From the NCBI GenBank assembly GCA_910890315.1, contig CAJVGD010000024.1, positions 1 to 39,671 of the forward strand: 39,671 nt of DNA, written 5' to 3'. Position 1 is the first letter of the stretch, and each line of letters begins with the position of its first letter. The notes under the pieces were generated by a model. That model did not search any database, was not told the origin of the DNA, and was given only the letters and a program-made list of their open reading frames with translations. The DNA comes from Serendipita indica DSM 11827 (Eukaryota > Basidiomycota > Agaricomycetes > Sebacinales > Serendipitaceae). The position numbers and the translations under genes are program-made. Below are positions 1 to 28,975 of the stretch, piece by piece.

Positions 1-932
1 CGCGTATGTGCACCTCTCAACCAGTCCAGATGGAAACTAGGCTAGATTACATGGCAGCCGCTGCTTGGGTGAGACCCGTCCAATTTCAAGCGTATTCCCT
101 CGATTGACCGATTACAAGTCCTCCTTACCGCCTATCAGGTGCGCATTTACCACAGGTCTGCTAAATAGGTGGCGCCATTACTATCAATCGCTTCCACCTT
201 ATCCGTCTCCTCGCCCTCCAAGCGATATGTTGGCCCGCGACGTTTTACACTTCGCTTCCTAATTGGTAGGGTCGAACGCCCTTTAGCCTGCTGGGCTGTG
301 ATAGGTACCACAACATGCGTGAGTAGCTTTCTCACGAGGGGACATGATTGACGTCGTGTACAGATAACGCGCTCTATACAACTTTGGTGACCTCGAACAT
401 TGACGACTGGCACCGCGACTCAGTCTCGACTCAGTACTCTGCACATACCGTCGCCTCGATTGCGCTCGGGTTTGGCGGAAAAAGGTCTGGGAGGGACCGA
501 GGCGGAAAGTGAAGGCAGGAGTAGCAGGCTCCAACGGCCGTCACATCAAGAACAATAGCCGAAAATGGGACTGGAACGAAGTCGTGTGGAAGTGTGCATT
601 TCCCCGCGAGTGTGCTACTTTTCATGGCATGGAGTCTGTTATTCAGTCGAGAACTCGACCGACTGAATCTGTCTAAACAGGACTGACCAGCATCACTCCA
701 ACCGTTCAATAACCCTAAATTTATTGTTGGTATCCGAAAGGATGCACGCCTGGACTGCATACGTTGTGGCATTCGCTGACATATAGGATACTTATCGATG
801 CCTGTTCATCGTCACACCGTCTCTACGCGACGATTTACCTTGTTCTCTTGTATATTGGTGTATGTTGTATCGATTTGCCTGGAAAAGCCATCTGTCTTGA
901 CATGCTCTAAGGGGTCCATTGAATCTCATGAA
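1..932. other. Duplicated non-annotated block, no gene recognised
   Basis: No reading frame here matches a family I know. The block is repeated at 8607-9568 with scattered small indels that shift most frames between copies, which argues against a conserved long coding region. A short plus-strand stretch reading LDYMAAAAWV, followed by a GTGAGA donor-like site, is kept in both copies up to a small indel and could be an old exon. The right part, from about 730, is the 3' flank of the HAD copy. Confidence 0.5.
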
Positions 933-1957
933 TTAAGATGCTTTTGGGTCCGAATCGTACGCAGGAAGGCCCCATTCCTCAGGTTGAAACTGCTCTAGGG
1001 AGGAAAGCATGGTCACGTCCAAGGACGAGTCGACGGCGAGTAGATTTGGATCCGGTACCCAAACGACTAAGGAAGGGTGAGAATACACGATATCGACGAA
1101 GGGTTCACTGACTTTGCATCCCAGCTGCTTTGCCACCCAAAACACCCGGGATTCCGTGTTCGAAGACCTGGAGGTTCATGAGAAGCAGTGAGCACAGATG
1201 ATCCACTACATACCAAACCTTTGCTCCTCTCAAGCTTCTCTTGTTTGCTGATATCGTGCTCCTCCCTTCCAACATTTCTGCCAATCAACTCTGCTGCACA
1301 GAGAAAAATATCCGGAAATGGTTTTCCTCGTACAACCTTTTCGGTACTCCAAACAGCCTTTCCATGCTCCGAGTCATCACCACACATAATCTTGTCGCCG
1401 AATAACCGAAAGATTTCGACCTTTTCGGGATCGCACTTTTCGTGGTGGGTCTTTAGATCGAAATTACGTCTGATGGAACCAATTGCGATGGCCATGGGGA
1501 TGCTGTGCATGTAACTGTCGGACGAGTTTGGCTGCACCGGGCATGAGACGGGTGAGTGGCCACTCAAGATCTTGGAGGCGTCGTCGCTCAGCGAGTAGTT
1601 GTCAATGCTGAGCTCGTATTCGATCCCAGAAAGGAGTTCCCACACAAGTTCTGCTCTGACACGTTCGGTTGGGAGGAACATCAGCCAAGTACTTTAGAAG
1701 AGAACAAGCTACCTGCGTTTGCCCATCACCTGGGACTTAATCTCCCATGTCATTTCACGTCCATAACGCGCCAGAATAGAATCTTTTCAGAGACTTAATA
1801 CTTGATCGGAGGCCGTACTGGTTACTTCGGTGTAAACGCGCTCGCTGTCGCTAGACAATGATCAGAAGGCACTCGTGCAGATGAATTTAAGGTATATGAG
1901 TAGGCCATCCATATCAAAAAGAACATATTCGACAGGCTGTCTCGTGCTTGAAGCCAT
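933..1957 (-). pseudogene. HAD-family phosphatase, decayed copy 1
   Basis: The opening ATG at 1957 is followed by the HAD motif I stretch FDMDGLL. Downstream exons match the intact paralog at 9569-10607, including the GKPFPDIFLCAAELIG region. The copy is damaged. The intron 1 donor that reads GT in the paralog reads AT here. The acceptor before the ERVRAELV exon reads AA instead of AG. A base is missing in the Asp-Asp-Tyr-Leu-Ala-Glu stretch, so the frame slips. The motif IV Asp of FEDGIPG is His (FEHGIPG). Any one lesion might be tolerated, but together they indicate a pseudogene. It lies 223 bp downstream of the NLR stop on the same strand. An active copy with unusual splicing is unlikely. 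Confidence 0.85.
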
Positions 1958-2180
1958 GTCGCCGGGTCAAAGGATGTCCTCACTACATGGTCGCTGACAG
2001 AACTCTGGAAATGTCTAACACTTCCTGGGTACTTGACTCAATCGGCATTCGGATAAGATGATCCCAACCCAGATCATACTCGAGACTGACATAGGATCTG
2101 ATACTGACTGATTATATATGTAAGAGAGAGAGAATCAACACTCGAATACAGTTGGAATGATCTGGTAGAGCAAGACATGA

Positions 2181-5100
2181 CTATGTAGAGTGTTCAGTGC
2201 ATATACAGCAGAGGGAGAGGAGTCGTTGAAATCTACCACGAGAGGGACGAGATTGTTGTGAAATAATGGACTCCAGCAGCTCTTTTGAGTCCACAGTACA
2301 ATGATGATCCGCACCCAAGACTTCAACGCGTAGTTCCATGGTCTCTTGAAGGAGCCTTGCAGCTTCGCTGAGTTGATTATTCCTGCATAATGTGATAGAG
2401 AGGCTGTATGAGGCATTGAGAGTTGTTGGATGGCGCGGACCGAGAGTCTCCAGCCGCAGAGCAAGGACGTCCTGCTCAATCTTTCCTGCCTCGTCCAACT
2501 GACCACGATCAAACAAGGTGACAGCAAGGTTAGCCATTGCCAAAATGGTATGTGGATGGCGCTGTCCAAGGATGTCGAGCCGCAGAGCGAGTACCTCTCG
2601 CATCATCTTCTCTGCTTCGTCCAACTGACCACGCTGGTTCAAGGTGTTGGCAAGGTTGCCTATTGCCGAAATGGTATCTGGATGGCGCTGTCCAAGGATG
2701 TCGAGCCGCAGAGCGAGTACCTCTCGCTGAATCTTCTCTGCTTCGTCCAACTGACCACGCTGGTTCAAGGTGTTGGCAAGGTTGCCCATTGCCGAAATGG
2801 TATCTGGATGGCGCTGTCCAAGGATGTCGAGCTGCAGAGCGAGTACCTCTCGCCTCACCTTCTCTGCTTCGTCGAACTGACCACGCTGGTTCAAGGTGAC
2901 GGCAAGGTTGCCCATTGCCGAAATGGTATCTGGATGGCGCTGTCCAAGGATGTCGAGCCGCAGAGCGAGTACCTCTCGCTGAATCTTCTCTGTTTCGTCC
3001 AACTGACCACGATCAGACAAGGTGACGGCAAGGTTGCCCATTGCCGAAATGGTATCTGGATGGCGCTGTCCAAGGATGTCGAGCCGCAGAGCGAGTACCT
3101 CTCGCCTCATCTTCTCTGCTTCGTCCAACTGACCACGCTGGTTCAAGGTGACGGCAAGGTTGCCCATTGCCGAAATGGTATCCGGATGGCGCTTTCCAAG
3201 GATGTCGAGCTGCAGAGCGAGTACCTCTCGCATCATCTTCTCTGCTTCGTCCAACTGACCACGCTGGTTCAAGGTGACGGCAAGGTTGCCCATTGCCGAA
3301 ATGGTATCCGGATGGCGCTTTCCAAGGATGTCGAGCTGCAGAGCGAGTACCTCTCGCATCATCTTCTCTGCTTCGTCCAACTGACCACGCTGGTTCAAGG
3401 TGTTGGCAAGGTTGCCCATTGCCGAAATGGTATCTGGATGGCGCTGTCCAAGGATGTCGAGCCGCAGAGCGAGTACCTCTCGCCTCATCTTCTCTGCTTC
3501 GTCCAACTGACCACGATCAGACAAGGTGACAGCAAGGTTGGCCATTGCCGAAATGGTATCCGGATGGCGCTTTCCAAGGATGTCGAGCTGCAGAGCGAGT
3601 ACCTCTCGCATCATCTTCTCTGCTTCGTCCAACTGACCACGCTGGTTCAAGGTGTTGGCAAGGTTGGCCATTGCCGAAATGGTATCTGGATGGCGCTGTC
3701 CAAGGATGTCGAGCTGCAGAGCGAGTACCTCTCGCCTCATCTTCTCTGCTTCGTCCAACTGACCACGCTGGTTCAAGGTGACCGCAAGGTTGCCCATTGC
3801 CGAAATGGTATCTGGATGGCGCTGTCCAAGGATGTCGAGCTGCAGAGCGAGTACCTCTCGCTCATCTTCTCTGCTTCGTCCAACTGACCACGCTGGTTCA
3901 AGGTGGCCGCAAGGTTGCCCATTGCCGAAATGGTATCTGGATGGCGCTGTCCAAGGATGTCGAGCTGCAGAGCGAGTACCTCTCGCTGAATCTTCTCTGC
4001 TTCGTCCAACTGACCACGCTGGTTCAAGGTGGCCGCAAGGTTGCCCATTGCCGAAATGGTATCTGGATGGCGCTGTCCAAGGATGTCGAGCCGCAGAGCG
4101 AGTACCTCTCGCCTCATCTTCTCTGCTTCGTCCAACTGACCACGCTGGTTCAAGGTGTTGGCAAGGTTGGCCATTGCCGAAATGGTATTCGGATGGCGCT
4201 TTCCAAGGATGTCGAGCTGCAGAGCGAGTACCTCTCGCTCAATCTTCTCTGTTTCGTCCAACTGACCACGATCAGACAAGGTGACGGCAAGGTTGCCCAT
4301 TGCCGAAATGGTATCTGGATGGCGCTTTCCAAGGATGTCGAGCTGCAGAGCGAGTACCTCTCGCTCAATCTTCTCTGTTTCGTCCAACTGACCACGATCA
4401 GACAAGGTGACGGCAAGGTTGCCCATTGCCGAAATGGTATCTGGATGGCGCTGTCCAAGGATGTCGAGCTGCAGAGCGAGTACCTCTCGCCTCATCTTCT
4501 CTGCTTCGTCCAACTGACCACGCTGGTTCAAGGTGACGGCAAGGTTGCCCATTGCCGAAATGGTATCCGGATGGCGCTGTCCAAGGATGTCGAGCCGCAG
4601 AGCGAGTACCTCTCGCCTCATCTTCTCTGCTTCGTCCAACTGACCACGCTGGTTCAAGGTGACGGCAAGGTTGGCCATTGCCGAAATGGTATCTGGATGG
4701 CGCTGTCCAAGGATGTCGAGCCGCAGAGCGAGTACCTCTCGCATCATCTTCTCTGCTTCGTCCAACTGACCACGCTGGTTCAAGATGTTGGCAAGGTTGC
4801 CCATTGCCGAAATGGTATCTGGATGGCGCTGTCCAAGGATGTCGAGCCGCAGAGCGAGTACCTCTCGCATCATCTTCTCTGCTTCGTCCAACTGACCACG
4901 CTGGTTCAAGGTGACAGCAAGGTTGGCCATTGCCGAAATGGTATCTGGATGGCGCTGTCCAAGGATGTCGAGCCGCAGAGCGAGTACCTCTCGCTCAATC
5001 TTTTCTGCTTCTTCCGACTGACCACACTTCTCTAACATGTCCCCAAGCTCGACCATCACCCATATTGAGCTTTTGTGCCGTTGACCGTGACACTGCTGGA

Positions 5101-7693
5101 CTTTGGAGAGTGCACATTTTAGCAGTTCTTGGCAAGCCCTCCAGCCACCCAACGAGTGGTAAAGCTTGTGGAATGCCAATGCGTGTGCCACATCCTCCGA
5201 TTGCACTGACCGAGGAATATTGCTAGCATGTGGAAGCAATTGCCAAAGCCGCCCATTGCTATCCTCCAACGGCCGGATTGCCCCCAGTACGAGTTGTGTC
5301 GCCGTGCGCGCATAGTGTCGATTATCTTCATCGTTAAGATAATCCTTGATGTACATCTGAAGGAGTGGATGCACAGTGTAGAATAACCCATCGTTCGAAG
5401 CATTGATAAATGACGCTTGAGATGCCGAGTCAATGATCTCCTGGAATGCGACCTCGTTCCACGCCGTGCCTAGAATCTCCTGGAGCGTTGAGATGAATGT
5501 TTTGTCAGACTCAGGGGGAGGAAAGTCATTCAAAACAGTGTATGTAGTAAAGCTGGACTCTATCGAGTGCTCAAACAATGAAATCGGGATGAGCGAATGG
5601 TGAAGAAATGCGCAAATCTTCAGGAAGTCTTGCGTCTTCGCCGGCAAATTGTGGAACGACAGGTCGAATGCGGTGTATGTCGACGATGTATACTCGTTGC
5701 CGAAATCTGGCTGCTTGCGCAGGAGTTCGTCTCGGTGCTTTCGAAACGTGTTCACATACGTTTCGAGTCGCCGTGTTTTGCGAATGTACACTCCTGCTTG
5801 AGTGATCGCGAGCGCCAGCATCCCCAACTCCTGAACGATCTCGATAGACTTGGTGTTGGATGTAGGCGAGGCATTGGCGAGTTTGTGAAGCAGATTGACC
5901 GCCTCGTTTTCCTCGAGATCACCAACAGCAACAGCGCCATCCGGAGCGTAGCTTATGCACTCGCTATTCCTCGTGGTGATCAAAATAAACCCGTGAATGG
6001 AAGCGGGAAGATATGGGCCAAGGTCGAGGTTTTGGGAGTCGGCATTGTCCACGAATAGTAACCAGCCTCTTTCTTTGCCGTCGAGGTAGGCAACTGCATC
6101 CTTCCACCCCATCGCTCTGTACTCCGGACCCAAGGAGCGAATAAATTGCTCCAAGTCTGCTTCAATTTGCGTCTGACTGGAGGCGTCGACAAAAATCACC
6201 CGAGTAAACCTAGTAAAGATGAGACAGTTCCAAGCATTTCTATCGTTCGTACCTGGCTTCGTTCTCTCCAATCCAGTTCGTTGCTAGTTGAGTCTTACCT
6301 GACCCTCCGATTCCATGTAATATACACCTTGGTTGACGTTGCACCTGACCACCCGGGAGCAACTTCTGCGTGATGAGGGACTGGACCGCCTCTCGCTTGA
6401 TGTAGCTCCTTGATACGGATGGACGAGGTTTAGGCAGTATGTCCTCTGGAGGGGCACATTCCTCATTTGCTACAGCTATGCTTTGATCAGCTAAAGACAG
6501 CGGGGTAGACTGGTTACAAACTGCGAAGCTTGTCCTCTATTGCCCACTTCTCCTGCACTGCCAGGCTGGCATTGTCGACGTACCCCTTGAGGCGATGATA
6601 AACCGTTTTATAGTTTTCTTCATCTTTGGATGAAAATCGAACCATGTTGCGGTGATTCGCATGAAGCACGATCGGCGTCCCGTTGCGGTCACCGGAGATA
6701 GTGGCTGAGTGATATGGAACATTCTATTTTTCGTTTAGTATTGTATTCGTGATTGGGAATCCACTGACCAGGTCTCCACGATTCCCAATACCTGATGTCG
6801 CATACTCCGCATAAAAGAAGATGCTGTTGATCTTCTCACTCGCCGCAACGTACAGACTCTGAATGTTCTCGAGTTCAGCCGAATTGGATCGAAGATCCTT
6901 GATGATATTGTCGGTAGTCTCCATGTATACCGACGCCAAGAGGTTGATTCCTTCAAGAATGTTTGTATTTTCGAGGCCGGAGTGCGGGGTTCCAAAGAAT
7001 AAGATTCCATGTGTGGATACGACCACGTCCCGAAGGCCACTCTTGGATGTCAAACTCTCATTATGGCAAATGACGAGAGCCTATGAAAGGGTCAGCACCT
7101 GGGTTTTGGTGGCTCCCGTATTACGAACCCATTTGAGAATGATGCCTCCTAGATCATGGGCAACGAAAATGATCGGACGCTAACCACTTGTTCAAAGGAG
7201 GCCAATCGGCAAGAATTGTTTCCCTTACTCGAGCGTCCTTGCGTACCCGTGAGAGTGCCTGGGCTAACTTCTCGGCATGTCGACGCATCGTCTGGGTTGA
7301 TACACATTCTCGACTGCGAGTGTCGGCGTCGTATCCATAGAGAAGGACTCGAGCGTTGGGTATGTCGGTACGCAAGAGGTCACGTAGCCACAAGTCTCCG
7401 TCTTCTGTCGTCCATGTCTTCTCTCTATGTCCTTGCAGACCATGAATAGCGACGATACTGGCGGGGAAAGCTAGGTGAGCGGCGAGCACGTGTAATAGCT
7501 GGGGTACTTGCTCGACGACAGGGTCAGTTCCAGACTGGACTTCTAGGAATCCGAAATGATCCGTCTTTGATTCTGTCTTCGAAGCCGAAGGCCTGTTACT
7601 CTGGGAATCCAGAGGTGTGGATTGGGCGTCGTTGTGCGACAATGATTGGGAGAGACGTAGGGTGTCCAACGAGGACAAGCGAGCATCCGACAT
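2181..7693 (-). pseudogene. NLR 1: esterase-like/NB-ARC/TPR protein with one frame break
   Basis: This is a STAND (NLR-like) receptor gene of the fungal esterase-NB-ARC-TPR class. Seven exons can be drawn: 7512-7693, 7229-7457, 7129-7179, 6769-7080, 6522-6723, 6253-6469 and 2181-6209. Exons 1-5 encode the alpha/beta-hydrolase-like domain (AIHGLQGHREKTW, then FVAHDLGGI, then LFFGTPHSGL). Exon 6 carries the P-loop GIGGSGKTQLA. Exon 7 has Walker B (GWLLFVDNAD), ILITTRN and GMLALAI, then 20 TPR units and two diverged cap units. One C is missing near 3860 inside repeat 9/10, so the last half of the array is out of frame. Exon 7 is 4029 nt, whereas the intact paralog's exon length leaves remainder 1 on division by three. 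Everything else is open, so a base-calling error in a highly repetitive array is a real alternative to gene death. The C-terminal tail resembles that of NLR 3. Confidence 0.85.
2475..4993 (-). repeat. TPR-coding minisatellite, 20 units of 126 bp
   Basis: Twenty 42-residue kinesin-light-chain-type TPR units of the form REVLALxLDILGxRHPxTIS then AMxNLAxTLxxRGQLDEAEKxx. The span is 2519 bp, which is 20 times 126 minus the single missing base near 3860. Units differ at a few recurrent positions only (R/Q, Q/K, D/N/H, G/A, V/N/A, NQ/SD and the last two residues). This points to recent expansion and homogenisation. Confidence 0.95.
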
Positions 7694-8110
7694 TGTTCAC
7701 GATGGAGATGGTGAGGAGCAAGCAAGGCTCGTTATTTGCTCAGAGGCGTGGCGCTAAACAGCTGGTGAGACTGGCACAGAGACCCCAATGAGCCAGCGGT
7801 GAAGATAGTCAAAAATGGCAACAATGTGAGCTAATGTCTCCACAATGACATTACATTTCAAAACAGCAGATCATTGATTTCCTCGAGTAAATAAGAGTGG
7901 TATAGTATCCTGAGGATGTCTTTACTTTGGAGGTCTGCTTCTTCCGAGACCATGGGCTATACTGAGACACCTGAGTCCTTGTGGACGCAATGACGTGAGA
8001 ATGGCATGTTTTATGAATTTGAACTAACAAGGCACATCCAATAGGCCGTCTAGTGGTCGAGGACACGGTCGAGTCCAATTCTTGACCACCACATTCACTC
8101 GGAAGGAAAA
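7694..8110. promoter_or_regulatory. Divergent intergenic region between NLR 1 and the Chz1-like copy
   Basis: About 417 bp separate the NLR 1 start codon from the start of the damaged Chz1-like copy, and the two point away from each other. The left part is duplicated upstream of NLR 2 (15460-15797). The part next to the Chz1-like ATG resembles the sequence before the intact gene at 21133, sharing a ccaccacattcactc stretch. No reading frame or clear core promoter motif is evident. Confidence 0.5.
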
Positions 8111-8362
8111 ATGTCCGACACGGAAATGCAAATGTAAAGCTTTAATGGTTAGTGTTTTTGGAGTAACTAAGACCATTGTAGGGACACGACGGAGGAACAT
8201 CGTGAGGTCGAACACGAGGAGAGCATTGAGCAGTCGATGGATCCAGCAAAGATTCTACCAACACGCATCCATCCCAACATGCCAAACGTCGATTACACGT
8301 CTCGAGGCGATTGCCCGTGCAGGACATCCTGCGACCGAGGTAAAGACGCTCATAAGACTTGA
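8111..8362 (+). pseudogene. Chz1-like histone chaperone, internally deleted copy
   Basis: The start MSDTEMQM, the first intron (donor at 8134, acceptor ending 8181) and the following exon match the intact gene at 21133-21575. After the SIEQSMD codons the sequence jumps straight to DPAKILPTR. It therefore lacks the acidic stretch and the second intron present in the intact copy. The deletion ends share the bases GATGGATC, so it looks like a microhomology-mediated loss. Two further bases are missing near the TCTCGAGG stretch, which throws the conserved C-terminus out of frame. Translation would stop at the TGA at 8360-8362. A short product could be made but would lack most of the conserved region. 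Confidence 0.75.
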
Positions 8363-9568: not shown

Positions 9569-10607
9569 TTAAGATGCTTTTGGGTCCGAATCGTACGCAG
9601 GAAGGCCCCATTCCTCAGGTCGAAACTGCTCTAGGGAGGAAAGCTTGGTCACGTCCAAGGACGAGTCGACGGCGAGTAGATTTGGATCTGGTACCCAAAC
9701 GACTAAGGAAGGGTGAGAATACACGATATCGACGAAGGGTTCACTGACCTTGCATCCCAGCTGCTTTGCCAGCCAAAACACCCGGGATTCCGTCTTCGAA
9801 GACCTGGAGGTTCATGAGAAGCAGTGAGCACAGATGATCGACTACATACCAAACCTTTGCTCCTCTCAAGCTTCTCTTGTTCGCTGATATCGTGCTCCTC
9901 CCTTCCAACATTTCTGCCAATCAACTCTGCTGCACAGAGAAAAATATCCGGAAATGGTTTGCCTCGTACAACCTTTTCGGTACCCCAAACAGCCTTTCCA
10001 TGCTCCGAGTCATCACCACACATAATCTTGTCGCCGAATAACCGAAAGATTTCGACCTTTTCGGGATCGCACTTTTCATGGTGGGTCTTTAGATCAAAAT
10101 TACGTCTGACGGAACCAGTTGCGATGGCCATGGGGATATTGTGCTTGTGTAAGTGCCGGACGAGTTTGGCTGCACCTGGCATGAGACGGGTGAGTGGCCA
10201 CTCAAGATCTTGGAGGCGTCGTCGCTCAGCGAGGTAGTCGTCGATACTGAGCTCGTTTTCGATTCCAGAAAGAAGTCCCCACATAAGTTCTGCTCCGACA
10301 CGTTCGGCTGGGAGGGAACATCAGTCAAGTGCTTTAGAAGAGAAAAAGCTACCTGCGTTTGCCCATCACCTGGGACTTAATCTCCCATGTCATTTCACGC
10401 CCATAACGCGCCAGAATAGAATCTTTTCACAGACTTAGTACTTGATCGGAGCAAACCAAGGGCCTTACTGGTTACTTCGGTGTAAACGCGCTCGCTGTCG
10501 CTAGACAATGATCAGAAGGCACTCGTGCAGATGAATTTAGGGTACATGAGTAGGCCATCCATATCAAAAAGAACATATTCAACAGGCTGTCTCGTGCTTG
10601 AAGCCAT
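9569..10607 (-). CDS. HAD-superfamily sugar-phosphate or nucleotide phosphatase, intact copy 2
   Basis: Predicted 268-aa haloacid dehalogenase-type phosphatase, close in layout to HDHD1/GS1-like (pseudouridine-5'-phosphatase) enzymes. Likely exons are 10546-10607, 10469-10500, 10357-10422, 9850-10307, 9749-9803 and 9569-9702, which join in frame to 807 nt. Motif I is FDMDGLLIDSE, with the nucleophile and acid/base Asp pair. Motif II is the Thr/Ser of AIATGS, motif III is the Lys of GKPFPD, and motif IV is VFEDGIPGVLAGKAAG followed by VVWVPD. The third intron keeps frame only if it begins GC rather than GT, giving the family-like MGKPERV junction; a GT donor four bases later breaks the frame. 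The gene follows NLR 2 on the same strand after about 270 bp. The substrate cannot be read from the sequence. Confidence 0.85.
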
Positions 10608-10875
10608 GTCGCCAGGTCAAAGGATGTCCTCACTACATGTTCGCCGACAGAACTCTGGAAATGTCTAACACTTCCTGGGTACTAGACTCAATCGGCACTC
10701 GGATAAGATGATCCCAACCCAGATGATACCCAAGACTGACATAGGACCTGATGCTGACTGATTGTATATGTAAGAGAGAGAGAATCAACACTCGAATACA
10801 GTTGGAATAATCTGGTAGGGCAAGACATAACTATGTAGAGTGCTCGGTTCATATACAGCAGGCAGACAGGAGTCG

Positions 10876-13800
10876 TTAGAATATATGACAAGATTGACGA
10901 GATTCTTGTAAAGCAATGGCCTCCAGGAGCCTTTGTGAGCTCACAGTACAACGATGTTCCCTACCCAAGACTTCAACGCGTAGTTCCATGGTCTCCTGCA
11001 GAAGCCTTGCGGCATTGTTGAGTTGATTATTCTTGTATAATGTCGTAGAGAGGTTGTATGAGGCATTGAGAGTTGTTGGATGGCGCGGACCAAGAGTCTC
11101 CAGCAGCAGAGCGAGGACCTCTTGCTCAATCCTTCCTGCTTTGTCCAACTGACCACGCTCGTTCAAGGTGACAGCAAGGTTGGTCATTGCTGAAATGGTA
11201 TCTGGATGGCGCTGCCCAAGGATGTCGAGCCGCAGAGCGACTACCTCTCGATGAATCTTTTCTGCTTCGTCCAACTGACCACGCTCGTTCAAGGTGTTAG
11301 CAAGGTTTCCCATTGCCGAAATGGTATGTGGATGGCGCTGTCCAAGGATGTCAAGCTGCAGAGCGAGTACCTCTCGCTCAATCTTTTCTGCCTTGTCCAA
11401 CTGACCACGCTGGTTCAAGGTGACAGCAAGGTTGGCCATTGCCGAAATAGTATCTGGATGGCGCTGTCCAAGGATGTCAAGCCGCAGAGCGAGTACCTCT
11501 CGCCTCATCCTCTCTGCTTCGTCCAACTGACCACGCTGGTTCAAGGTGACAGCAAGGTTTCCCATTGCCGAAATGGTATGTGGATGGCGCTGTCCAAGGA
11601 TATCGAGCTGCAGAGCAAGTACCTCTCGCCTCATCTTTTCTGCCTCGTCCAACTGACCGCGCTGGTTCAAGGTGATGGCAAGGTTGCCCATTGCAGAAAT
11701 GGTATGTGGATGGCGCTGTCCAAGGATGTCAAGCTGCAGAGCGAGTACCTCTCGCCTCATCCTCTCTGCTTCGTCCAACTGACCACGCTGGTTCAAGGTG
11801 TTGGCAAGGCTGTCCATTGCCAAAATGGTATGTGGATGGCGCTGTCCAAGGATGTCGAGCCGCAGAGCGAGTACCTCTCGCTGAATCTTCTCTGCTTCGT
11901 CCAACTGACCACGCTGGTTCAAGGTGACAGCAAGGTTTCCCATTGCCGAAATGGTATCTGGATGACGCTGTCCAAGGATGTCGAGCTGCAGAGCGACTAC
12001 CTCTCGATGAATCTTTTCTGCTTCGTCCAACTGACCACGCTCGTTCAAGGTGTTAGCAAGGTTTCCCATTGCCGAAATGGTATGTGGATGGCGCTGTCCA
12101 AGGATGTCAAGCTGCAGAGCGAGTACCTCTCGCTCAATCTTTTCTGCCTTGTCCAACTGACCACGCTGGTTCAAGGTGATGGCAAGGTTGCCCATTGCCC
12201 GAATGGTATGTGGATGGCGCTGTCCAAGGATGTCGAGCCGCAGAGCGAGTACCTCTCGCCTCATCTTCTCTGCTTCGTCCAACTGACCACGCTCGTTCAA
12301 GGTGACAGCAAGGTTGGCCATTGCCGAAATAGTATCTGGATGGCGCTGTCCAAGGATGTTGAGCCGCAGAGCGAGTACCTCTCGCCTCATCCTCTCTGCT
12401 TCGTCCAACTGACCACGCTGGTTCAAGGTGACAGCAAGGTTTCCCATTGCTGAAATGGTATGTGGATGGCGCTGTCCAAGGATGTCGAGCTGCAGAGCGA
12501 GTACCTCTCGCCTCATCTTTTCTGCCTCGTCCAACTGACCACGCTGGTTCAAGGTGATGGCAAAGTTGCCCATTGCCGAAATGGTATCTGGATGGCGCTG
12601 TCCAAGGATGTCGAGCTGCAGAGCGAGTACCTCTCGATGAATCTTTTCTGCTTCGTCCAACTGACCATGCTGGTCCAAGGTGATAGCAAGGTTGGCCATT
12701 GCAGAAATGGTATCTGGATGGCGCTGTCCAAGGATGTCGAGCTGCAGAGCGAGTACCTCTCGCCTCATCTTTTCTGCTTCATCCAACTGACCACACTCCT
12801 GTAACATATCCCCAAGCGTGGCCATCACCCATCTTGAGCTTTCATGCCGTTGGTCGTGATGCTCCTGCACTTTGGAGAGTGCAGATTCTAGCAGTTCTTG
12901 GCAAGCCCTCCAGCCACCCAACAAGTTGTAAAGCTTGTAGAAGGCCAATGCGTGTGCCACATCCTCCGATTGCACTGATCGAGGGATGTTGTTAGCGTGT
13001 GGAAGCAATTGCCAAAGCCGCACATTGCTACCCTCCAACGGCCGGATTGCCCCCAGTACGAGTTGGGTCGCCGTGCGCACATAGTGTCGATTATCTTCAT
13101 CGTTAAGATAATCCTTGATGTACATCTGAAGGAGTGGATGCACAGTGTAGAATAACCCATCGTTCGAAGCATTGATAAATGACGCTTGAGATGCCGAGTC
13201 AATGATCTCCTGGAATGCGACCTCGTTCCACGCCGTGCCTAGAATCTCCTGGAGCGTTGAGATGAATGTTTTGTCAGACTCAGGGGGAGGAAAGTCATTC
13301 AAAACAGTGTATGTAGTAAAGCTGGACTCTATCGAGTGCTCAAACAATGAAATCGGGATGAGCGAATGGTGAAGAAATGCGCAAATCTTCAGGAAGTCTT
13401 GCGTCTTCGCCGGCAAATTGTGGAACGACAGGTCGAATGCGGTGTATGTCGACGATGTATACTCGTTGCCGAAATCTGGCTGCTTGCGCAGGAGTTCGTC
13501 TCGGTGCTTTCGAAACGTGTTCACATACGTTTCGAGTCGCCGTGTTTTGCGAATGTACACTCCTGCTTGAGTGATCGCGAGCGCCAGCATCCCCAACTCC
13601 TGAACGATCTCGATAGACTTGGTGTTGGATGTAGGCGAGGCATTGGCGAGTTTGTGAAGCAGATTGACCGCCTCGTTTTCCTCGAGATCACCAACAGCAA
13701 CAGCGCCATCCGGAGCGTAGCTTATGCACTCGCTATTCCTCGTGGTGATCAAAATAAACCCGTGAATGGAAGCGGGAAGATATGGGCCAAGGTCGAGGTT

Positions 13801-15459
13801 TGGAGAGTCGGCATTGTCGATGAATAGTAACCAGCCTCTTTCTTTGCCGTCGAGGTAGGCAATTGCATCCTTCCACCCCATCGCTCTGTACTCCGGACCC
13901 AAGGAGCGAATAAATTGCTCCAAGTCTGCTTCAATTTGCGTCTGACTGGAGGCGTCGACAAAAATCACCCGAGTAAACCTAGTAAAGATGAGACAGTTCC
14001 AAGCATTTCTATCGTTCGTACCTGGCTTCGTTCTCTCCAATCCAGTTCGTTGCTAGTTGAGTCTTACCTGACCCTCCGATTCCATGTAATATACACCTTG
14101 GTTGACGTTGCACCTGACCACCCGGGAGCAACTTCTGCGTGATGAGGGACTGGACCGCCTCTCGCTTGATGTAGCTCCTTGATACGGATGGACGAGGTTT
14201 AGGCAGTATGTCCTCTGGAGGAGCATATTCTTCATTTGCTACAGCTATGCTTTGATCAGCCAAACACATTGGGATAGACTGGTTACAAACTGCGAAGCCT
14301 GTCCTCTGTAGCCCACTTCTCCTGCACTGCCAGGGGGGCATTGTCGACGTATCCCTTGAGGTGATGATGAACCGTTTTATAGTTTTCTTCATCTTTGGAT
14401 GAAAATCGAACCATGTTGCGGTGATTCGCATGAAGCACGATAGTTGTCCCGTTGCGGTCACCGGAGATAGTGGCTGAGTGATATGGAACATTCTATTTTT
14501 CGTTTAGTATTGTATTCGTGATTGGGAATCCCACTGACCAGGTCTCCACGATTCCCAATACCGGAAGTCACATACTCCGCATAAAAGAAGATGCTGTTGA
14601 TCTTCTCACTCGCCGCAACGTACAGACTCTGAATGTTCTCGAGTTCAGCCGAATTGGATCGAAGATCCTTGATGATATTGTCGGTAGTCTCCATGTATAC
14701 CGACGCCAAGAGGTTGATTCCTTCAAGAATGTTTGTATTTTCGAGGCCGGAGTGCGGGGTTCCAAAGAATAAGATTCCATGCGTGGATACGACCACGTCC
14801 CGAAGGCCACTCTTGGATGTCAAACTCTCATTATGGCAAATGACGAGAGCCTATGAAAGGGTCAGCACCTGGGTTTTGGTGGCTCCGCATGAACCCATTT
14901 GAGAATGATACCTCCTAGATCATGGGCAACGAAAATGATCGGACGCTAATCACTTGTTCAAAGGAGGCCAATCGGCAAGAATTGTTTCCCTTACTCGAGC
15001 GTCCTTGCGTATCCGTGAGAGTGCCTGGGCTAGCTTCTCGGCATGTCGACGCATCGTCTGGGTTGATACGCATTCTCGACTGCGAGTGTCGGCGTCGTAT
15101 CCATAGAGAAGGACTCGAGCGTTGGGTATGTCGGTACGCAAGAGGTCACGTAGCCACAAGTCTCCGTCTTCTGTCGTCCATGTCTTCTCTCTATGTCCTT
15201 GCAGACCATGAATAGCGACGATACTGGCGGGGAAAGCTAGGTGAGCGGCGAGCACGTGTAATAGCTGGGGTACTTGCTCGACGACAGGGTCAGTTCCAGA
15301 CTGGACTTCTAGGAATCCGAAATGATCCGTCTTTGATTCTGTCTTCGAAGCCGAAGGCCTGTTACTCTGGGAATCCAGAGGTGTGGATTGGGCGTCGTTG
15401 TGCGACAATGATTGGGAGAGACGTAGGGTGTCCAACGAGGACAAGCGAGCATCCGACAT
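10876..15459 (-). CDS. NLR 2: esterase-like/NB-ARC/TPR receptor, intact
   Basis: Predicted 1431-aa cytosolic STAND NTPase of the fungal NLR type. Exons are 15278-15459, 14995-15223, 14895-14945, 14539-14850, 14291-14492, 14022-14238 and 10876-13978, 4296 nt in frame. Residues about 60-320 form an alpha/beta-hydrolase-like (DUF676/PGAP1-like) domain. Its nucleophile elbow reads AHDLGG, with Asp146 where serine is usual. The P-loop GIGGSGKT begins near residue 378, Walker B is GWLLFIDNAD, followed by ILITTRN and GMLALAI. TPR units fill 804-1349 (13 units) with diverged caps to the end. Intron 1 begins GCAAGT (a GC-AG intron); being 54 nt and open, it could also be retained, adding 18 residues. 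The NB-ARC part is almost identical to NLR 1. The stop comes earlier than in NLR 1 and 3, removing a shared tail of about 15-20 residues. Such proteins act in non-self recognition and cell death in other fungi; here that role is inferred. Confidence 0.9.
11125..12762 (-). repeat. TPR-coding minisatellite, 13 units of 126 bp
   Basis: The span is exactly 13 times 126 bp with an open frame throughout. A second-order pattern is visible: units 9-10 repeat the signature of units 2-3, unit 12 matches unit 6 exactly at protein level, and units 7 and 13 both start REVVAL. A block of about five or six units has therefore been duplicated inside the array. Confidence 0.95.
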
Positions 15460-15794
15460 TGTTCACGATGGAGATGGTGAGGAGCAAGCAAGGCTCGTTA
15501 TTTGCTCAGAGGCGTGGCGCTAAACAGCCGGCGAGACTGGCACAGAGACCCCAATGAGCCAGCGGTGAAGATAGTCAAAAATGGCAACAATGTGAGCTAA
15601 TGTCTCCACAATGACATTGCATTTCAAATCAGCAGACCATTGATTCCCTCGAATAAATATGAGTGGTGTAGTATCCTGAGGATGTCTTTACCTTGGGGAG
15701 GTATGTTTCTTCCGAGACCATGGGCTATACTGAGACACCCGAGTCCTTGCGGACGCAATGACGTGAAAATGACATGTTTTATGAATTTGAACTA
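15460..15794. promoter_or_regulatory. Upstream region of NLR 2
   Basis: Duplicate of 7694-8030. No open frame of note. It ends at the breakpoint where similarity to the left duplication unit stops and the orphan NLR fragment begins. No specific regulatory motif can be defended. Confidence 0.45.
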
Positions 15795-16083
15795 ACGAGG
15801 TGTCCGACCAGTTGTTCCATCAAAAATAGCGCAGTTTCGTGCTTTTGGTCGTGACGCGGCTGAACTTGGGAAGTGCGGACTCTAATAGCTCTCGACATGC
15901 CTTCCAGTCCCCCAATGCATCGCAAAGTGTGTAGAAAGCAAATCCGTGCGTCAAATTCTCTGATTGCACAGATCGAGAGATTCTTTAAGTGTGTGGGAGC
16001 AATTGCCAAAGGTGCGCATTGCTCTCCGCCGGCACCCAGCACGAGCTGCATCGTCGTATGCGCATACTATCGGTTATCCCGTG
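15795..16083 (-). pseudogene. Orphan fragment of a third-type NLR (linker before the TPR array)
   Basis: The minus strand encodes MQLVLGA, then REFDARICFLHTLRCIGG, then QKHETALFLMEQL. It aligns at DNA level with about 18005-18290 of NLR 3, the region between NB-ARC and the first TPR unit. There is no P-loop, no TPR array and no start. The reading frame changes within the fragment compared with NLR 3. At its right end it joins directly to HAD exon 3 sequence near 16083. It is a breakpoint scar left by recombination between cassettes. Confidence 0.85.
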
Positions 16084-16323
16084 GAATGTAACCTCCCATG
16101 TCATTTCATGCCCATAACGCGCCAGAATGAAATCTTTTCAGAGACTTAGTACTTGATCGGAACAAAGCAAAGACTTTACTATTATAGTCACTTCGGTGTA
16201 AACGCGTTCACTGTCACTTGACAATGATCAGAAGGTAGTCGTGCAGATGGATTCAGGGTACATGAATAGGCCATCCATATTGAAAAGGACGTATTCGACA
16301 GGCTATATCATGTTTGAAGCCAT
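16084..16323 (-). pseudogene. HAD phosphatase, 5' relic of copy 3
   Basis: Matches exons 1-3 and the first two introns of the HAD gene at 9569-10607, then ends abruptly at the junction near 16083. The start codon at 16323 is followed after five codons by an in-frame TAG. The motif I nucleophile Asp is replaced by Asn (FNMDG instead of FDMDG). It lies 204 bp downstream of the NLR 3 stop, the same position the HAD copies hold behind NLR 1 and NLR 2. This shows the HAD-NLR order predates the separation of the three cassettes. Confidence 0.85.
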
Positions 16324-16527
16324 GTCGCCGAGTCGAAGGATGTCCCGCTACATAACCGCTCGCAAAATTCTGGAAATGCCTAACACTTCCTGCGTACTTG
16401 ACACCAATCAACACTCAGATCACACCCGAGAACCGACATAGGTCCTGTTACTGACTGAGCGCCCATGTAAGAGAGAGAGAATCAATACTCGAATACAATT
16501 GGAATGATCTGGTAGAGCAAAACATGA

Positions 16528-19500
16528 CTATGTAGAGCGCTCGGTGCATGTACAGCAGACGGACAGGATTCGTTGAAATCTACCACGAGAGTGACGAGAT
16601 TGTTGTAAAACAATGGTATCCAGGAGCTCCTTTGATTTCACAGTACAACGATGATCCGCACCCAAGACTTCAACGCGTAATTCCATGGTCTCTTGCAGAA
16701 GCCTTGCAGCCTCTTCGAGTTTATTGTTCTTGAACAAAGTCATAGAGAGATTGTACGAGGCATCCAGAGTTTCTGGATGCCGTGGTCCAAGCATCTCCAG
16801 ACGTAGAGCAAGTACTGCTTGCTCTAGTTTCTCCGCATCGTCCAGCTGGCCACATTGATAAAGTGTATTGGCAAGGTTGGCTATTGCCAAAATAGTGCCT
16901 GGATGGCGCCGTCCAAAGATCTCCAGCCGGAGAGCAAGTGCCGTTTGTTGAAGCATTTGCGCCTCTTCCAGCTGATCACGGTCGTACAAGGTGCTTGCAA
17001 GGTGATCCATTGCCAAAATGGTGTCTGGATCCCGTGGTCCACGGACGTCAAGCCATAGGGCAAGAACCTCCCGCTCAAGCTTTTCTGCCTCATCCAGTTG
17101 ACCACTTTCATGCAAGGTGGGTGCAAGGTTGTTCATTGCCAGAAGGGTGTTCGGATTGCGTGGACCAAGGATGTCAAGCCACAGAGCGAGTACCTCTCGT
17201 TCAAGCTTTTCTGCCTCGTCCAATTGACCAAGCTTGTGCAAGGTACCTGCAAGGTTGTTCATTGCCAAAATGGTGTCTGGGTGGCGTTGTCCAAGGATTT
17301 CCAGCCGCAGAGCAAAGACCTCTCGCTCTATCTTTTCTGCCTCTTCCAACTGACCCAGGTCGCGCAAGCTGCCGGCAAGGTTACCCATTGCCAAAATGGT
17401 GGCTGGATGACGTGATCCAAGGATGTCAAGCCGCAGAGCGACTATCTCTCGCTCAAGCCTTTCCGCCGCATCTAACTCACCACGGCTGTACAAGATGGTT
17501 GCGAGGTTGCTCCTTGCCACGATGGTGTTTGGATGACGTGGTCCAAGGATGTCAAGCCGCAGAGCAAGTACCTCTCGTACAATCTTTTCTGCCTCTTCCA
17601 GCTGACCACGCTCATGCAAGATACCCGCAAGGTTGTTCATTGACGAGATAGTGTCTGGATGATGTGGTTCAAGGATCTCCAGCCGCAGGGCGAGCACCTC
17701 TCGCTGAATCTTTTCAGCCTCGTCCAACTGACCAAGGGCGTGCAAGGTACCCGCGAGGTTGTTCATTGCCAGAATGGTGGCCGGATGGCGTGGTCCAACA
17801 ATCTCCAACCGCAGAGCGAGTACTTCTCGTCTCATCTTTTCCGCCTTGTCTAACTGACCAAGGTTGTGCAAGGTGTTAGCAAGGTTGCCCATTGCAGTAA
17901 TAGTGTCTGGATGGCGTGGTCCAACAATCTCTAACCGGAGTGCAAGTACTTCCTGCTGAAGCTTTTCCGATTGATCCGACTGGCCACAGTCCTGTAATAC
18001 CCGGCCGAGTTGTTCCATCAAAAAGAGGACACTTTCGTGCTTTTGGCCGTGACGGTGCTGAACTTGTGAAAGCGCGGACTCTAATAGCTCTCGGCATGCC
18101 TTCCAGTCCCCCAATGCATCGTAAAGTGTGTAGAAGGCTAATGAATGCACCAAATTCTCCGATTGGGCCGATCTAGGGATTTTTTGAACGTGTGGAAGCA
18201 ACTGCCAAAGGCGCGCATTGCCACCCTCCGATGGCCGAATCGCACCAAGCACGAGCTGCATCGTCGTACGTTCATAAAGTCTGTTATCATCATCGCTCAG
18301 ATGATGCTTGATGTACATTTGAAGGATGGGGTGGACAGAGTAGGATAGTCCATCAGTCGAAACGTCAATAAACGACGCGCGCGATGCAGATTTAACAATC
18401 TTCTGGAATTTCTTTTCGTTCCACATCATGCCTAGAATCTCCTGGAGCTTTGAGATGTATACTTGGTCACTTTCTGGTGGAGGAAAGTCATCCAGGACCG
18501 TGTATGTAGCGAAACCGGTACCCATCGACTCCTCAAACAAAGATATTGGGATATTCGAGTGGTTAAGAAATGCACAAAGGTCCAAAAAGCTCTGTGTATG
18601 AGCCGGTAAGATGCGGAATGACAGGTCGAACGCGGTGTACGTTGAGGATGTGTATTCGTCGCCTACGTCTGGCTTCTCGTCCAACATTTCGTCTCGATGC
18701 TTTCGAAAGGTGTCCAAGTATGTTTCGAGTCGCCGGGTCTCGCGAATGTATGCACCCGCCCGAGTAATCGCGAGCGCGAGCATCCCCAACTCCCGAACGA
18801 TCTCAATAGACTGAGTGTTGGATTGAGGTGAGATATTGGCGATTTTGTGAAGAAGATTGATCGCTTCGGTTTCCTCGAGACCACCCACGGGAATTGCACC
18901 GTCCCGAGCGTAGCTGATGCATTCACTGTTCCTCGTAGTGATCAAAATTGATCCATAAACGGAATTAGGTAGGTATGGGCGAAGGTTTAGATCCGGGAGG
19001 TCGGCATTGTCAAGAAACAGGAGCCAGCCTTTTTCCTTGCCGTCGAGGTAGGCCACCGCGTCCGCCCAGGTCATCTTGCTATATTCTGGGCCCAAAGAGC
19101 GGATTGACCGCTCCAAATCTGCTTCGATTTGTGCCTGACTGGAAGCATCAATAAAAATCACCCTAGTGAATCTGACAAAAGGTTAGCGGTTCTCTCGGAA
19201 GCCGTCACAAATCTTACCTGGCTTCGTGATCCCGAATCCATCTCGTTGCAAGCTGAGTCTTGCCTGAACCTCCGATTCCGTGTAATATACACCGTGGTTG
19301 ATTCTGTACGCTGCCCGGAAGCAACTTTTCCGTGATGAGGGATTGAATCACTTTTCGCTCGATGTAGTCTCTTAATACAGGTGGACGAGATTTAGGCAGT
19401 GGGAGGTCTAGGGAAGCTTGCTTTCCCTTTGCCGCATCTGTAAAGCCAATCAGTGCAGAAAGCGTAGGGAGGTGGTTACAAACCACGAAGCCTGTTCTCC

Positions 19501-20610
19501 GTAATCCACTTCTCCTGAACAGCTGCAGGCGCACCGTTGACATAGTCTTTGATATGGTACTGAACCGCTTTATAATTGTCGTCCTCCTTGGATGAAAATC
19601 GGACCAGATTGTGGTGATTCGCATGAAGGACGATTGTCGTTGCGTTGCGGTCGCCAGGGATAGTCGCCGAGTGATACGGGATATTCTATCGCCGAGTTAG
19701 TTTCTGCCCCCTGGATGGCAATACACGAACCAGATCTCGTTGATCCGCAGTGTTCGACGTTACGTATTCTTCGCAGAAGAATATGCTGCTTATTTTCTCG
19801 CTCGCTGTAGTGTATAAATCTTGTATGTTTGCAAGCTCGGATGAATGAGATTGAAGATCCTTGATGATAACGTCTGTAGTTTTCATGTATAGTGACGCGA
19901 AACGGTTGATTACTTCGAGCGAGGTGATACTCTCGAGACCGGAGTGTGGCGTCCCGAAGAATAGGATTGCGTGTGTGGACACGAGGACATCGCGAAGCTT
20001 GTGATAATCTGATGTTAAGCTTTGCGTATGGCAGATAACGAGAGCCTACGAAAAGGTCATCAGCTTATTTCTCGGGGATCTAGTGTCACAAACCCATTTG
20101 AGAATGATGCCTCCTAGATCATACGCAACGAAAATGATGGGGCGCTAGTCACTGTTCAGAGGAGACCAGCCACTGCCAGGATTTACTCACCCGAGGGTGG
20201 TCTTTCCGTGCCCGCGAGAGAGCCTGGGCTAGCCCCTTGGCATGTAGATACATTGTATTTGTTGATACACACTCTCGGCTGCGAGTGTCGGCATCATAGC
20301 CGTATGCAAGAATTCGAGCGTTCGGTATATCGACCGGCAAAAGGTCACGCAGCCAAAGGTGTCCATCATCCGTTGTCCATGTCTTTTCCCTATGCCCCTG
20401 CAAGCCATGAATAGCGACGATACTGCCAGGGCAAATCAACTAAGCCGCGAGGAGGTGCAATGGCTAGTGTGCTTACTCGACAACCGGGTCTATTCCAGGG
20501 GTAATTTCTAGAAACCCAAGATCATCTATCTTTGATTTGGGCATGAGGGTTGGTGATCTGCCAGCCGTGGAATCTGTAGATTGTTCCGCATGTAAACGAC
20601 TATCAGACAT
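16528..20610 (-). CDS. NLR 3: esterase-like/NB-ARC/TPR receptor, intact and diverged
   Basis: Predicted 1265-aa STAND NTPase. Exons 20477-20610, 20191-20422, 20094-20144, 19731-20045, 19484-19685, 19218-19437 and 16528-19171 join to 3798 nt in frame, with GT-AG introns of about 40-55 nt. The start MSDSRLHAEQ corresponds to MSDARL in the paralogs. The hydrolase-like domain (about 45-310) has AIHGLQGHREKTW, the elbow AYDLGG with Asp131, and LFFGTPHSGL, with a possible catalytic His in HANHHNLVRF. The P-loop GIGGSGKT begins near 365, Walker B GWLLFLDNAD near 434, then ILITTRN and GMLALAI. Nine well-diverged TPR units (791-1168) are followed by caps and a Cys-containing tail. Intron positions are the same as in NLR 1 and 2, but the protein is clearly more distant. 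It is divergent from the Chz1-like gene across about 520 bp. A role in non-self recognition is inferred from the family. Confidence 0.92.
16822..17955 (-). repeat. TPR-coding array, 9 diverged units of 126 bp
   Basis: Exactly nine 42-residue units in frame. In contrast to the other two arrays the units have drifted apart (for example EIVGPRHPDT, EILEPHHPDT, DVRGPRDPDT), so it has not been homogenised recently. Unit length has been kept perfectly. Confidence 0.93.
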
Positions 20611-21132
20611 TGTTTATGATGGAGATAATGAGGGACAAGTGGGCTCGGTTCTTTTAAAGATGCACTAAGGACTGGCCCAGGTGGCGAGGCAACTGGCGAG
20701 AACTGAAGCTGGCAAGTAGGGCTGACCTGTCTGTCGGGTTATTTTTTCAATGAATTGATCAGAATAATGGCAATTGACTGTCCACATTTGCTTCGGTCAA
20801 TTAGACCTTGGAACATCGAGCTCTGGCGTCTAGTATGTATAGACTATGAAGGAACGATGCAAGTAATCAATATCTTGCTCGCCTAGATGCGCGATTCTAC
20901 CGGAGACAACGCGCTAAAAGTCGAGCTACACCGATTGAGGCAGCCCATATTCACCCGTTCGTCCGTAATGGATGTCTCCAACGGGGTACACGATGTACAT
21001 GTCTGCGTATTTTGGGGTGATGATTAGTGCAAAGGTCCAGTCAATGGGCCGTTGGTGGTCGAGGTCGCGGTCCTTGGGTCGAAGTGAATCCAGTCTTCGC
21101 CACCACATTCACTCACAACTTTCTTGGGAAAA
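20611..21132. promoter_or_regulatory. Divergent promoter region between NLR 3 and the Chz1-like gene
   Basis: About 520 bp between two outward-facing start codons. The first part after the NLR start is moderately similar to 7694-7740 and 15460-15510. The part before 21133 resembles the stretch before the damaged copy at 8111. No gene is seen, and no transcription-factor site can be named with confidence. Confidence 0.5.
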
Positions 21133-21575
21133 ATGTCTGATACGGAAATGCAAATGTAAAGCCTTAATGGTTAATGCTTTTGGAATAACTAAGAACATTG
21201 TAGGGACACGACGGAGGGACATCGCGAGGTCGAACACGAGGAGAGCATTGAGCAGTCGATGGATCAGTCTGAACACGAAGGAGACGAAACTCATGATGAA
21301 TCTGAAGACTCTGAAGACGAAGAGGCGCTCGTCGTACGTCGCTTTGATGAGGATTTTGCTGATATTGACGCGTGTTTGTGGTACAGGAGATGGATCCAGC
21401 AAAGATTCTACCAACACGCATCCGTCCCAACATGCCAAAGGTCGATTACACGTCCCCCGAGGCGATTGCCCGTGCAGGCATTGCCGGGCAGGATGAGCCA
21501 GATCCTCAGGACGCAGAGTATATCCCCACAGAGGAAGCTGTACCCGAAGACGAAGACCACAGCATGCAGCAATAG
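21133..21575 (+). CDS. Small acidic Chz1-like H2A.Z histone chaperone
   Basis: Three exons, 21133-21155, 21204-21333 and 21387-21575, encode 113 residues. The N-terminal half is rich in Glu, Asp and Ser (MDQSEHEGDE, then EDSEDEEALV). The C-terminal half has EMDPAKILPTR and KVDYTSPEAIARAGI and ends in another acidic stretch. The layout of an acidic arm, an ID/MDP-like motif, a basic patch and VDYTS matches the fungal Chz1 chaperone, which binds H2A.Z-H2B dimers in the nucleus. I recognise this by pattern, not by alignment. The second intron (21334-21386) has GT-AG ends; if retained the frame would change. A damaged copy sits at 8111-8362. Another acidic nuclear protein is the main alternative. 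Confidence 0.65.
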
Positions 21576-28916: not shown

Positions 28917-28975
28917 ACTCGCGGGGCAGGACATGGGAGCCTACCTGCGTCAGGAAACCCACTTTCCATCTCACA

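What the first reader, a model, noticed from the sequence alone, without database searches (positions are those of the whole stretch)
1..21575. Three-cassette NLR / HAD phosphatase / Chz1-like array built by tandem duplication
The order HAD behind NLR on one strand, with a divergent Chz1-like gene in front of the NLR, recurs: complete in cassette 1, HAD-NLR in cassette 2, and HAD relic-NLR-Chz1 in cassette 3. Each cassette has kept a different subset in working form. The NLR is intact in 2 and 3, HAD only in 2, Chz1-like only in 3. This birth-and-death pattern is typical of immune loci. Retention of the HAD next to NLRs may be hitchhiking, or the HAD may be a partner or guarded target (inference only).
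Basis: partly seen in the sequence, partly recalled or inferred. Interest (0 to 1): 0.75.

Follow-up and report, generated by a model that had tools for sequence, protein, structure and literature searches.

The report
Fungal NLR array with hitchhiking genes
In the root-dwelling fungus Serendipita indica a duplicating block of immune-receptor-like genes has dragged along two unrelated neighbour genes, which keep a good copy and decay elsewhere, while the receptors carry an unusual change at the predicted active site of their front-end enzyme domain.

Summary
The window is a whole contig (C24) of Serendipita (Piriformospora) indica. Three cassettes are present: a HAD phosphatase gene behind an NLR, with a small acidic gene in front (absent in cassette 2). 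Cassettes 1 and 2 are recent duplicates (92-95%); cassette 3 is old (74-78%). C24 is most likely the second-nucleus version of part of contig C12, which shows one recent cassette where C24 shows two. A related array lies about 350 kb away on C12. The HAD (pseudouridine-5'-phosphatase family) is clearly intact only in cassette 2; cassette 1 and C12:639k share two splice-site lesions. HAD DNA lies beside 7 of 59 related NLR loci, all in these arrays: hitchhiking, not partnership. The 'Chz1-like' gene gets no CHZ match. Cassette 1's broken NLR rests on one 1-base change, within assembly noise. A further point: the NLR's N-terminal alpha/beta-hydrolase-like domain has Asp instead of Ser at the nucleophile position. 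So do 34 NLR-linked elbows genome-wide (15 Ser, 7 Asn, 1 Ala), with a nearby His kept in all 27 domains read. Whether this is a changed enzyme or a dead one is open.

The parts
933..1957 (-). Cassette 1 HAD (pseudouridine-5'-phosphatase family), pseudogene
   Evidence: intron-1 donor and intron-3 acceptor lost (both shared with C12:639k), 3 exon bases missing, ATGS to AIGS, FED to FEH
2181..7693 (-). Cassette 1 NLR: hydrolase-like domain, NB-ARC, TPR (20 repeats by one pattern); frame change after 9 repeats (real or assembly error)
8105..8343 (+). Cassette 1 fragment of the acidic ('Chz1-like') gene: 131 bases lost between two copies of GATGGATC, plus a 2-base loss
   Evidence: repeat positions 8236, 21258, 21389
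9569..10607 (-). Cassette 2 HAD, open, 6 exons, 268 aa; intron 3 read as a GC-AG intron
   Evidence: PDB 3l5k, E 1.7e-40; Pfam HAD_2 E 3.5e-15
10876..15459 (-). Cassette 2 NLR, open, 7 exons, 1433 aa, 14 TPR repeats by one pattern; elbow AHDLGG on a 51-base exon
   Evidence: NB-ARC 29.9 bits, cut-off 23.5; TPR
15810..16078 (-). NLR fragment (relic) at the cassette 2/3 junction
   Evidence: 81% to 18008-18288
16076..16567 (-). Cassette 3 HAD relic (5' part and upstream region only)
16528..20610 (-). Cassette 3 NLR, open, 7 exons, 1265 aa, 8 TPR repeats by one pattern; elbow AYDLGG
21133..21575 (+).
19016..39671 (.). Stretch colinear with C12:265343-286000 (reversed): evidence that the contig is a haplotig

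Best explanation
This is a tandem array of fungal NLR genes (hydrolase-like domain, NB-ARC, TPR) in S. indica that grows and shrinks by duplication and exchange between copies. The duplicated block includes two bystander genes, a pseudouridine-5'-phosphatase-type HAD and a small acidic protein gene. On this contig each bystander keeps one open copy (HAD in cassette 2, acidic gene in cassette 3) and decays elsewhere. The NLRs most likely act as non-self sensors: the variable TPR array binds a ligand, the NB-ARC oligomerises on nucleotide exchange, and the N-terminal domain starts a response. Shown: gene anatomy, decay pattern, copy-number difference between contigs, mosaic exchange, TPR variation. 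Inferred: non-self sensing, oligomerisation and output, from known fungal NLRs such as PLP-1.
For: HAD DNA occurs at 6 places in the genome (7 rows, one copy in two pieces), all in these arrays; 52 of 59 related NLR loci have none within 6 kb. NLR frames are kept while HAD copies die. In the HAD block cassette 1 and C12:639k share 35 two-against-two sites, cassettes 1 and 2 share 1; in the NLR block the three groupings have 12, 9 and 4, so copies are mosaics. Over 25,000-39,671 C24 and C12 differ at 47 of 14,617 aligned bases, 3.2 per kb, near the 2.6 SNPs per kb published for this heterokaryon (PMC3192844, passages). TPR counts by one pattern: 20, 14, 8, 7 and 17 in cassettes 1, 2, 3, C12:294k and C12:639k.
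Against: No other species could be compared. The C12 side could be a collapsed assembly: its HAD region has 36 gap openings in one kilobase, and its recent NLR has 21 missing bases and a stop in the N-terminal half, so its true state is unknown. NLRs decay too: C12:634k shows no TPR repeat by the pattern and stops in all frames there, and the C12 copy of cassette 3 shows 6 repeats in two frames, so 'NLR kept, HAD lost' is a tendency. Between cassette 2 and the dead HADs dN/dS is 0.32-0.36, against 0.63 (8 changes) between the two dead ones, so the HAD has been conserved on some branch; a role for one HAD copy in NLR biology is not excluded. Nothing here shows that the NLRs act in non-self recognition.
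Confidence: 0.85

Rival explanations
1. The HAD is a functional partner or guarded target of the NLR, kept next to it for co-inheritance.
For: All six HAD copies found lie beside NLRs; no unlinked copy was found. Fungal NLRs with protein triggers are known, e.g. PLP-1 and SEC-9 (PMC12881547, passages).
Against: The HAD is dead or truncated beside NLRs in cassettes 1 and 3 and at C12:639k; 52 of 59 related NLR loci have no HAD DNA within 6 kb.
Confidence: 0.07
2. C24 and C12:265-296k are not two nuclear versions but a segmental duplication in one genome.
For: The assembly is given as one genome of 24.7 Mb and 55 contigs; the cassette region and one BTB gene differ far more than the rest.
Against: About 20 kb including a UTP20-type gene is colinear, at about 3 SNPs per kb in most of it, close to the published inter-nuclear level.
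Confidence: 0.12
3. The array difference (one versus two recent cassettes) is an assembly collapse on C12. This can hold together with the main explanation.
For: Heavy indel noise in the C12 HAD region; short C12 TPR array, 7 repeats.
Against: C12 runs into DNA with no match to the window right after the cassette boundary.
Confidence: 0.3

Closest known systems
Fungal NLRs of the SesB-like / NB-ARC / TPR type (e.g. Pa_2_10340 of Podospora anserina, PMC4986451, passages)
   Same: Same domain order; homogeneous TPR repeats; repeat-number polymorphism.
   Different: Asp, not Ser, at the nucleophile position of the N-terminal domain (that SesB-like domains have Ser there is recalled). A basidiomycete host, where SesB-like NLR domains are reported as almost missing (PMC9815663, passages), although one P. 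indica NLR is already labelled SesB-like in PMC4986451.
PLP-1 of Neurospora crassa (patatin, NB-ARC, TPR), incompatibility with SEC-9 (PMC12881547, passages)
   Same: Lipase-class N-terminal domain in front of NB-ARC and TPR.
   Different: Different N-terminal domain family; no evidence here of a linked polymorphic trigger.
NLR clusters in Sordariales (PMC12258605, passages)
   Same: Clustered NLRs, with unequal exchange and gene conversion proposed.
   Different: There only 16 of 272 clusters consisted of paralogous copies; here the cluster is made of paralogous cassettes carrying neighbour genes.
HDHD1 / pseudouridine-5'-phosphatase (PDB 3l5k, 9m7l)
   Same: Full-length similarity; HAD motifs kept in cassette 2.
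   Different: Genomic setting only; activity untested.

Membership tests
Fungal NLR | NB-ARC or NACHT domain | tested here: met
   NB-ARC 29.9 bits against cut-off 23.5
Fungal NLR | C-terminal superstructure-forming repeats | tested here: met
   TPR_10 and TPR_12 far above cut-off
Fungal NLR | Control of cell death or non-self response | not testable with these tools
   No functional data
SesB-like alpha/beta-hydrolase | Alpha/beta-hydrolase profile match | tested here: inconclusive
   DUF676 19.8 bits, cut-off 20.3; Abhydrolase_6 16.8, cut-off 26.3
SesB-like alpha/beta-hydrolase | Catalytic Ser in the elbow (HSLGG; recalled) | tested here: not met
   AHDLGG in cassettes 1 and 2, AYDLGG in cassette 3
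SesB-like alpha/beta-hydrolase | Conserved His in the second half of the domain | tested here: met
   kept in 27 of 27 domains read (24 fetched regions, 3 array copies); that it is the catalytic His is my inference
Pseudouridine-5'-phosphatase (HAD) | Full-length similarity and HAD motifs | tested here: met
   for cassette 2; motif names recalled
Pseudouridine-5'-phosphatase (HAD) | Enzyme activity | not testable with these tools
   Not assayed
Chz1 (CHZ domain) | CHZ profile match | tested here: not met
   Searches (E up to 1; C-terminal part, E up to 10): no CHZ hit. Best match in the genome search is C13:317627, also below cut-off
NLR plus guarded partner pair | Partner retained intact beside each NLR | tested here: not met
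   HAD dead beside NLRs; 52 of 59 related loci have no HAD DNA within 6 kb

The most novel reading that the evidence does not exclude
S. indica NLRs carry an alpha/beta-hydrolase-type effector whose nucleophile has switched from Ser to Asp, with Asn forms as mutational neighbours (all 18 Ser codons in the elbow search are AGY, so AGY to AAY to GAY needs only single steps). A His motif is kept, and the switched domain sits in front of both NB-ARC and NACHT. The boldest reading is an immune effector using Asp-nucleophile chemistry, as in epoxide hydrolases and dehalogenases (recalled), rather than serine-lipase chemistry.
Probability: 0.3. Interest if true: 0.7.

Novelty: new variant of a known kind. 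Interest (0 to 1): 0.45.

Why it matters
The array shows how NLR clusters turn over in the fungus with the highest NLR count of a 2014 survey (274; PMC4986451, passages), with two probable nuclear versions side by side and bystander genes marking the duplication history. It moves the proposed HAD-NLR link to hitchhiking. If the Asp (or Asn) elbow is functional, a large set of fungal NLRs uses a different effector chemistry from the one their family name implies; if it is dead, dozens of NLRs work without that enzyme. Either is testable.

Tried and rejected
RIP-like or CpG mutation as the cause of HAD decay: CpG transitions are a minority in the cassette comparisons, so not pursued. The first HAD models, with a GT donor for intron 3, went out of frame; a GC-AG intron restores the frame and gives MGKP. 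I first took a 10-base deletion for an exon lesion; it lies inside intron 2. A first dN/dS run on the NLR used a wrong exon start and is discarded (the NLR part; its HAD part stands); one search replaces it. The first TPR count failed through a bad pattern and was redone; the pattern is strict, and Pfam TPR_10 lists 15 stretches in cassette 2 and 11 in cassette 3 against 14 and 8. A HAD_2 hit between two NACHT places on C10:514026 is a different HAD frame beside what I read as an H2B frame, not support for the link. The HAD_2 search did not recover the window's own spliced HAD, so it is a weak negative for other HADs. The ratio above 1 at 9 of 42 TPR positions is partly circular, the positions being chosen for variability, and is an uncorrected ratio of proportions. 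Elbow linkage used 65 of 107 NB-ARC rows and 24 of 91 NACHT rows; Asp and Ser counts agree, which used all rows; the Asn and Ala counts rest alone. The Ser-type search gave 28 matches against 8 in its backwards control, the Asp-type search 39 against 1. Searches for a HAD-NLR link or an Asp elbow in fungal NLRs (10 of 38, 8 of 204 and 6 of 32 papers listed) and for Serendipita NLR work (12 of 54,962 and 8 of 72 listed) showed nothing on either point in titles and abstract starts; further papers were not read. I saw passages only of PMC3192844, PMC4986451, PMC9815663, PMC12258605 and PMC12881547. The search for heterokaryon assemblies of this species listed none (10 of 490 papers listed).
Full report
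WHERE THIS IS. The window is an entire contig, C24 (39,671 bases), of a 24.7 Mb, 55-contig assembly. An exon of a phosphate transporter in the same assembly is identical, apart from residues at the exon edges, over about 250 aa to the transporter of PDB 9b49/7sp5; that this transporter is from Serendipita (Piriformospora) indica is recalled.

THE ARRAY. Self-comparison shows a recent tandem duplication of cassettes 1 and 2 (92-95%) and an older cassette 3 (74-78%). The NLRs are seven-exon genes: an N-terminal hydrolase-like domain (DUF676 at 19.8 bits, just under its cut-off of 20.3), NB-ARC (29.9 bits, cut-off 23.5) and TPR repeats. Cassette 2 encodes 1433 aa and cassette 3 encodes 1265 aa. 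Cassette 1 has an open N-terminal half with all splice sites, and one frame change after 9 of 20 repeats.

THE HAD. In cassette 2, six exons give a 268-aa protein matching HDHD1 / pseudouridine-5'-phosphatase over its full length (E 1.7e-40). One intron is read as GC-AG, as is one in the cassette 2 NLR. HAD-homologous DNA lies at six places in the genome: C24 cassettes 1, 2 and 3, the two C12 counterparts, and C12:637-640k. Cassette 1 and C12:639k share loss of the intron-1 donor and the intron-3 acceptor, and the change ATGS to AIGS; C12:639k also has RGNPFPD for RGKPFPD (that these are catalytic motifs is recalled). The C12:294k copy keeps the first four introns' splice sites but has 35 missing and 2 extra exon bases, so its state cannot be judged.

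HITCHHIKING. Of 59 NB-ARC loci at 48% identity or more, 7 have HAD DNA within 6 kb, all in these arrays; C24 and C12 versions count separately. NLR frames mostly stay open where HADs die, but not always: C12:634k shows no TPR repeat by the pattern. The acidic gene is complete in cassette 3, and both its exon hits recur without stops in the C12 counterpart; fragments lie in cassette 1 and at C12:633085 and C12:645730. In cassette 1 it lost 131 bases between two copies of GATGGATC, which suggests a microhomology deletion. One open copy of each bystander on this contig and decay elsewhere is what passengers would show. The acidic gene is not shown to be Chz1: no CHZ match, while C13 has a frame reading GRRTRGVKIDF, itself below the Pfam cut-off. 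Distant kinship with Chz1 is not excluded.

TWO NUCLEI. From 19,016 to 39,671 the window is colinear with C12:265,343-286,000, reversed. Over 25,000-39,671 there are 47 mismatches in 14,617 aligned bases (3.2 per kb), close to the published inter-nuclear level, and 68 gap openings against 48 mismatches in the binned count (40 in C24, 28 in C12). In largely coding DNA that points to consensus errors, so single-base frameshifts in either contig should not be trusted. C12 carries cassette 3 and one recent cassette, then DNA without a match to the window (I read WD40 and aminopeptidase-like frames there, not searched). C24 carries at least two recent cassettes. Collapse on C12 is not excluded.

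EXCHANGE AND REPEATS. In the HAD block cassette 1 groups with C12:639k (35 sites against 1). In the NLR block the three groupings have 12, 9 and 4 sites. So the copies, including one about 350 kb away, are mosaics. In 58 pooled TPR repeats (51 distinct; cassettes 1 and 2, C12:639k, C12:294k) variation sits mostly at 9 of 42 positions. The ratio of nonsynonymous to synonymous differences there is 1.3-2.9 in these four arrays and 0.84 in cassette 3, against 0.15-0.33 at the other 33 positions. The positions were picked for variability, so this is consistent with, not proof of, diversifying selection, which is already reported for fungal NLR repeats (PMC4986451, passages).

THE EFFECTOR DOMAIN. 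The elbow reads AHDLGG in cassettes 1 and 2 and AYDLGG in cassette 3, with Asp where a lipase would have Ser. A genome search for A-[HY]-X-L-G-G-[IM] with any X gave 76 matches (backwards control 9). X is Asp 39 times, Ser 18, Asn 10 and another residue 9 times. Lying 0.3-1.6 kb upstream of a listed NB domain on the same strand are 34 Asp (19 NB-ARC, 15 NACHT), 15 Ser (all NB-ARC), 7 Asn (4 and 3) and 1 Ala; 5 Asp, 3 Ser, 3 Asn and the 8 others are not linked to a listed NB domain (flipped-strand control 0 for the Asp and Ser sets). All 18 Ser codons are AGY. I read 27 domains: 9 of the 34 linked Asp, 7 of 15 Ser, 7 of 7 Asn, the Ala one, and 3 array copies. A His in an (A/S/N)(D/N)H-type motif is kept in all 27, with variation around it; for L054 the script's motif printout was offset and the His is read from the translation. 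In a tree of this domain the seven Ser sequences form one group (support 1.0) with ADHC[EQ]MVKF; Asp, Asn and Ala forms make up the rest, with Asn in separate places and NACHT-linked members among NB-ARC-linked ones, though most deep splits there have support under 0.85. Midpoint rooting leaves direction open. A survey of fungal NLR N-termini reports SesB-like domains as almost missing in basidiomycetes (PMC9815663, passages), but an earlier one already labels one P. indica NLR SesB-like (PMC4986451), so the domain class in this species is not new; the Asp elbow may be. A kept His beside a conserved Asp suggests function; the Asn forms and the Ala form suggest tolerance of loss. I put Asp chemistry at 0.3.

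HOW IT PROBABLY WORKS. Ligand binding by the variable TPR array, nucleotide-dependent oligomerisation through NB-ARC, and output by the N-terminal domain are inferred from known fungal NLRs such as PLP-1 (PMC12881547, passages).

VERDICT. The HAD link is best read as hitchhiking in a birth-and-death NLR array. The most interesting lead is the Asp elbow, which lies outside the original claim.

Noticed in passing
window 23303-24109 (+), against the counterpart on C12: BTB gene whose 5' half is almost identical between the two contigs (0-2 mismatches per 60 bases to about 23,600) while the 3' half and flank to about 24,300 differ by roughly 30-50%; both frames are open, 70% aa identity overall. 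A dimorphic C-terminus between the two nuclei, or gene conversion from a paralogue.
   Followed up: partly
genome-wide, e.g. window 14908, 20107, 7142: Asp, Ser or Asn at the hydrolase elbow of NLR N-terminal domains in front of both NB-ARC and NACHT.
   Followed up: yes
C12:633-646k (L015, L016): Second array with a diverged NLR without TPR repeats by the pattern, a dead HAD, an NLR with 17 repeats and acidic-gene fragments; the HAD-side edge matches window 8351, as in C24.
   Followed up: partly
C10:514026 (L040): A different HAD-type frame next to what I read as an H2B frame, lying between two NACHT hits; probably chance.
   Followed up: partly
window 35000-38000: Region around a UTP20-type gene (Pfam UTP20 in the frame at 33943-35466) with 29 gap openings in C24 relative to C12 over three kilobases: likely consensus errors.
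   Followed up: partly
window 24766-27861 (+): 1031-aa open frame with a weak ubiquitin-conjugating-enzyme match below cut-off (24.4 bits against 27).
   Followed up: no
C16:223362 and C16:201591 (L026, L028): Two phosphate transporter genes on C16, one matching the solved transporter almost exactly, the other clearly diverged.
   Followed up: no
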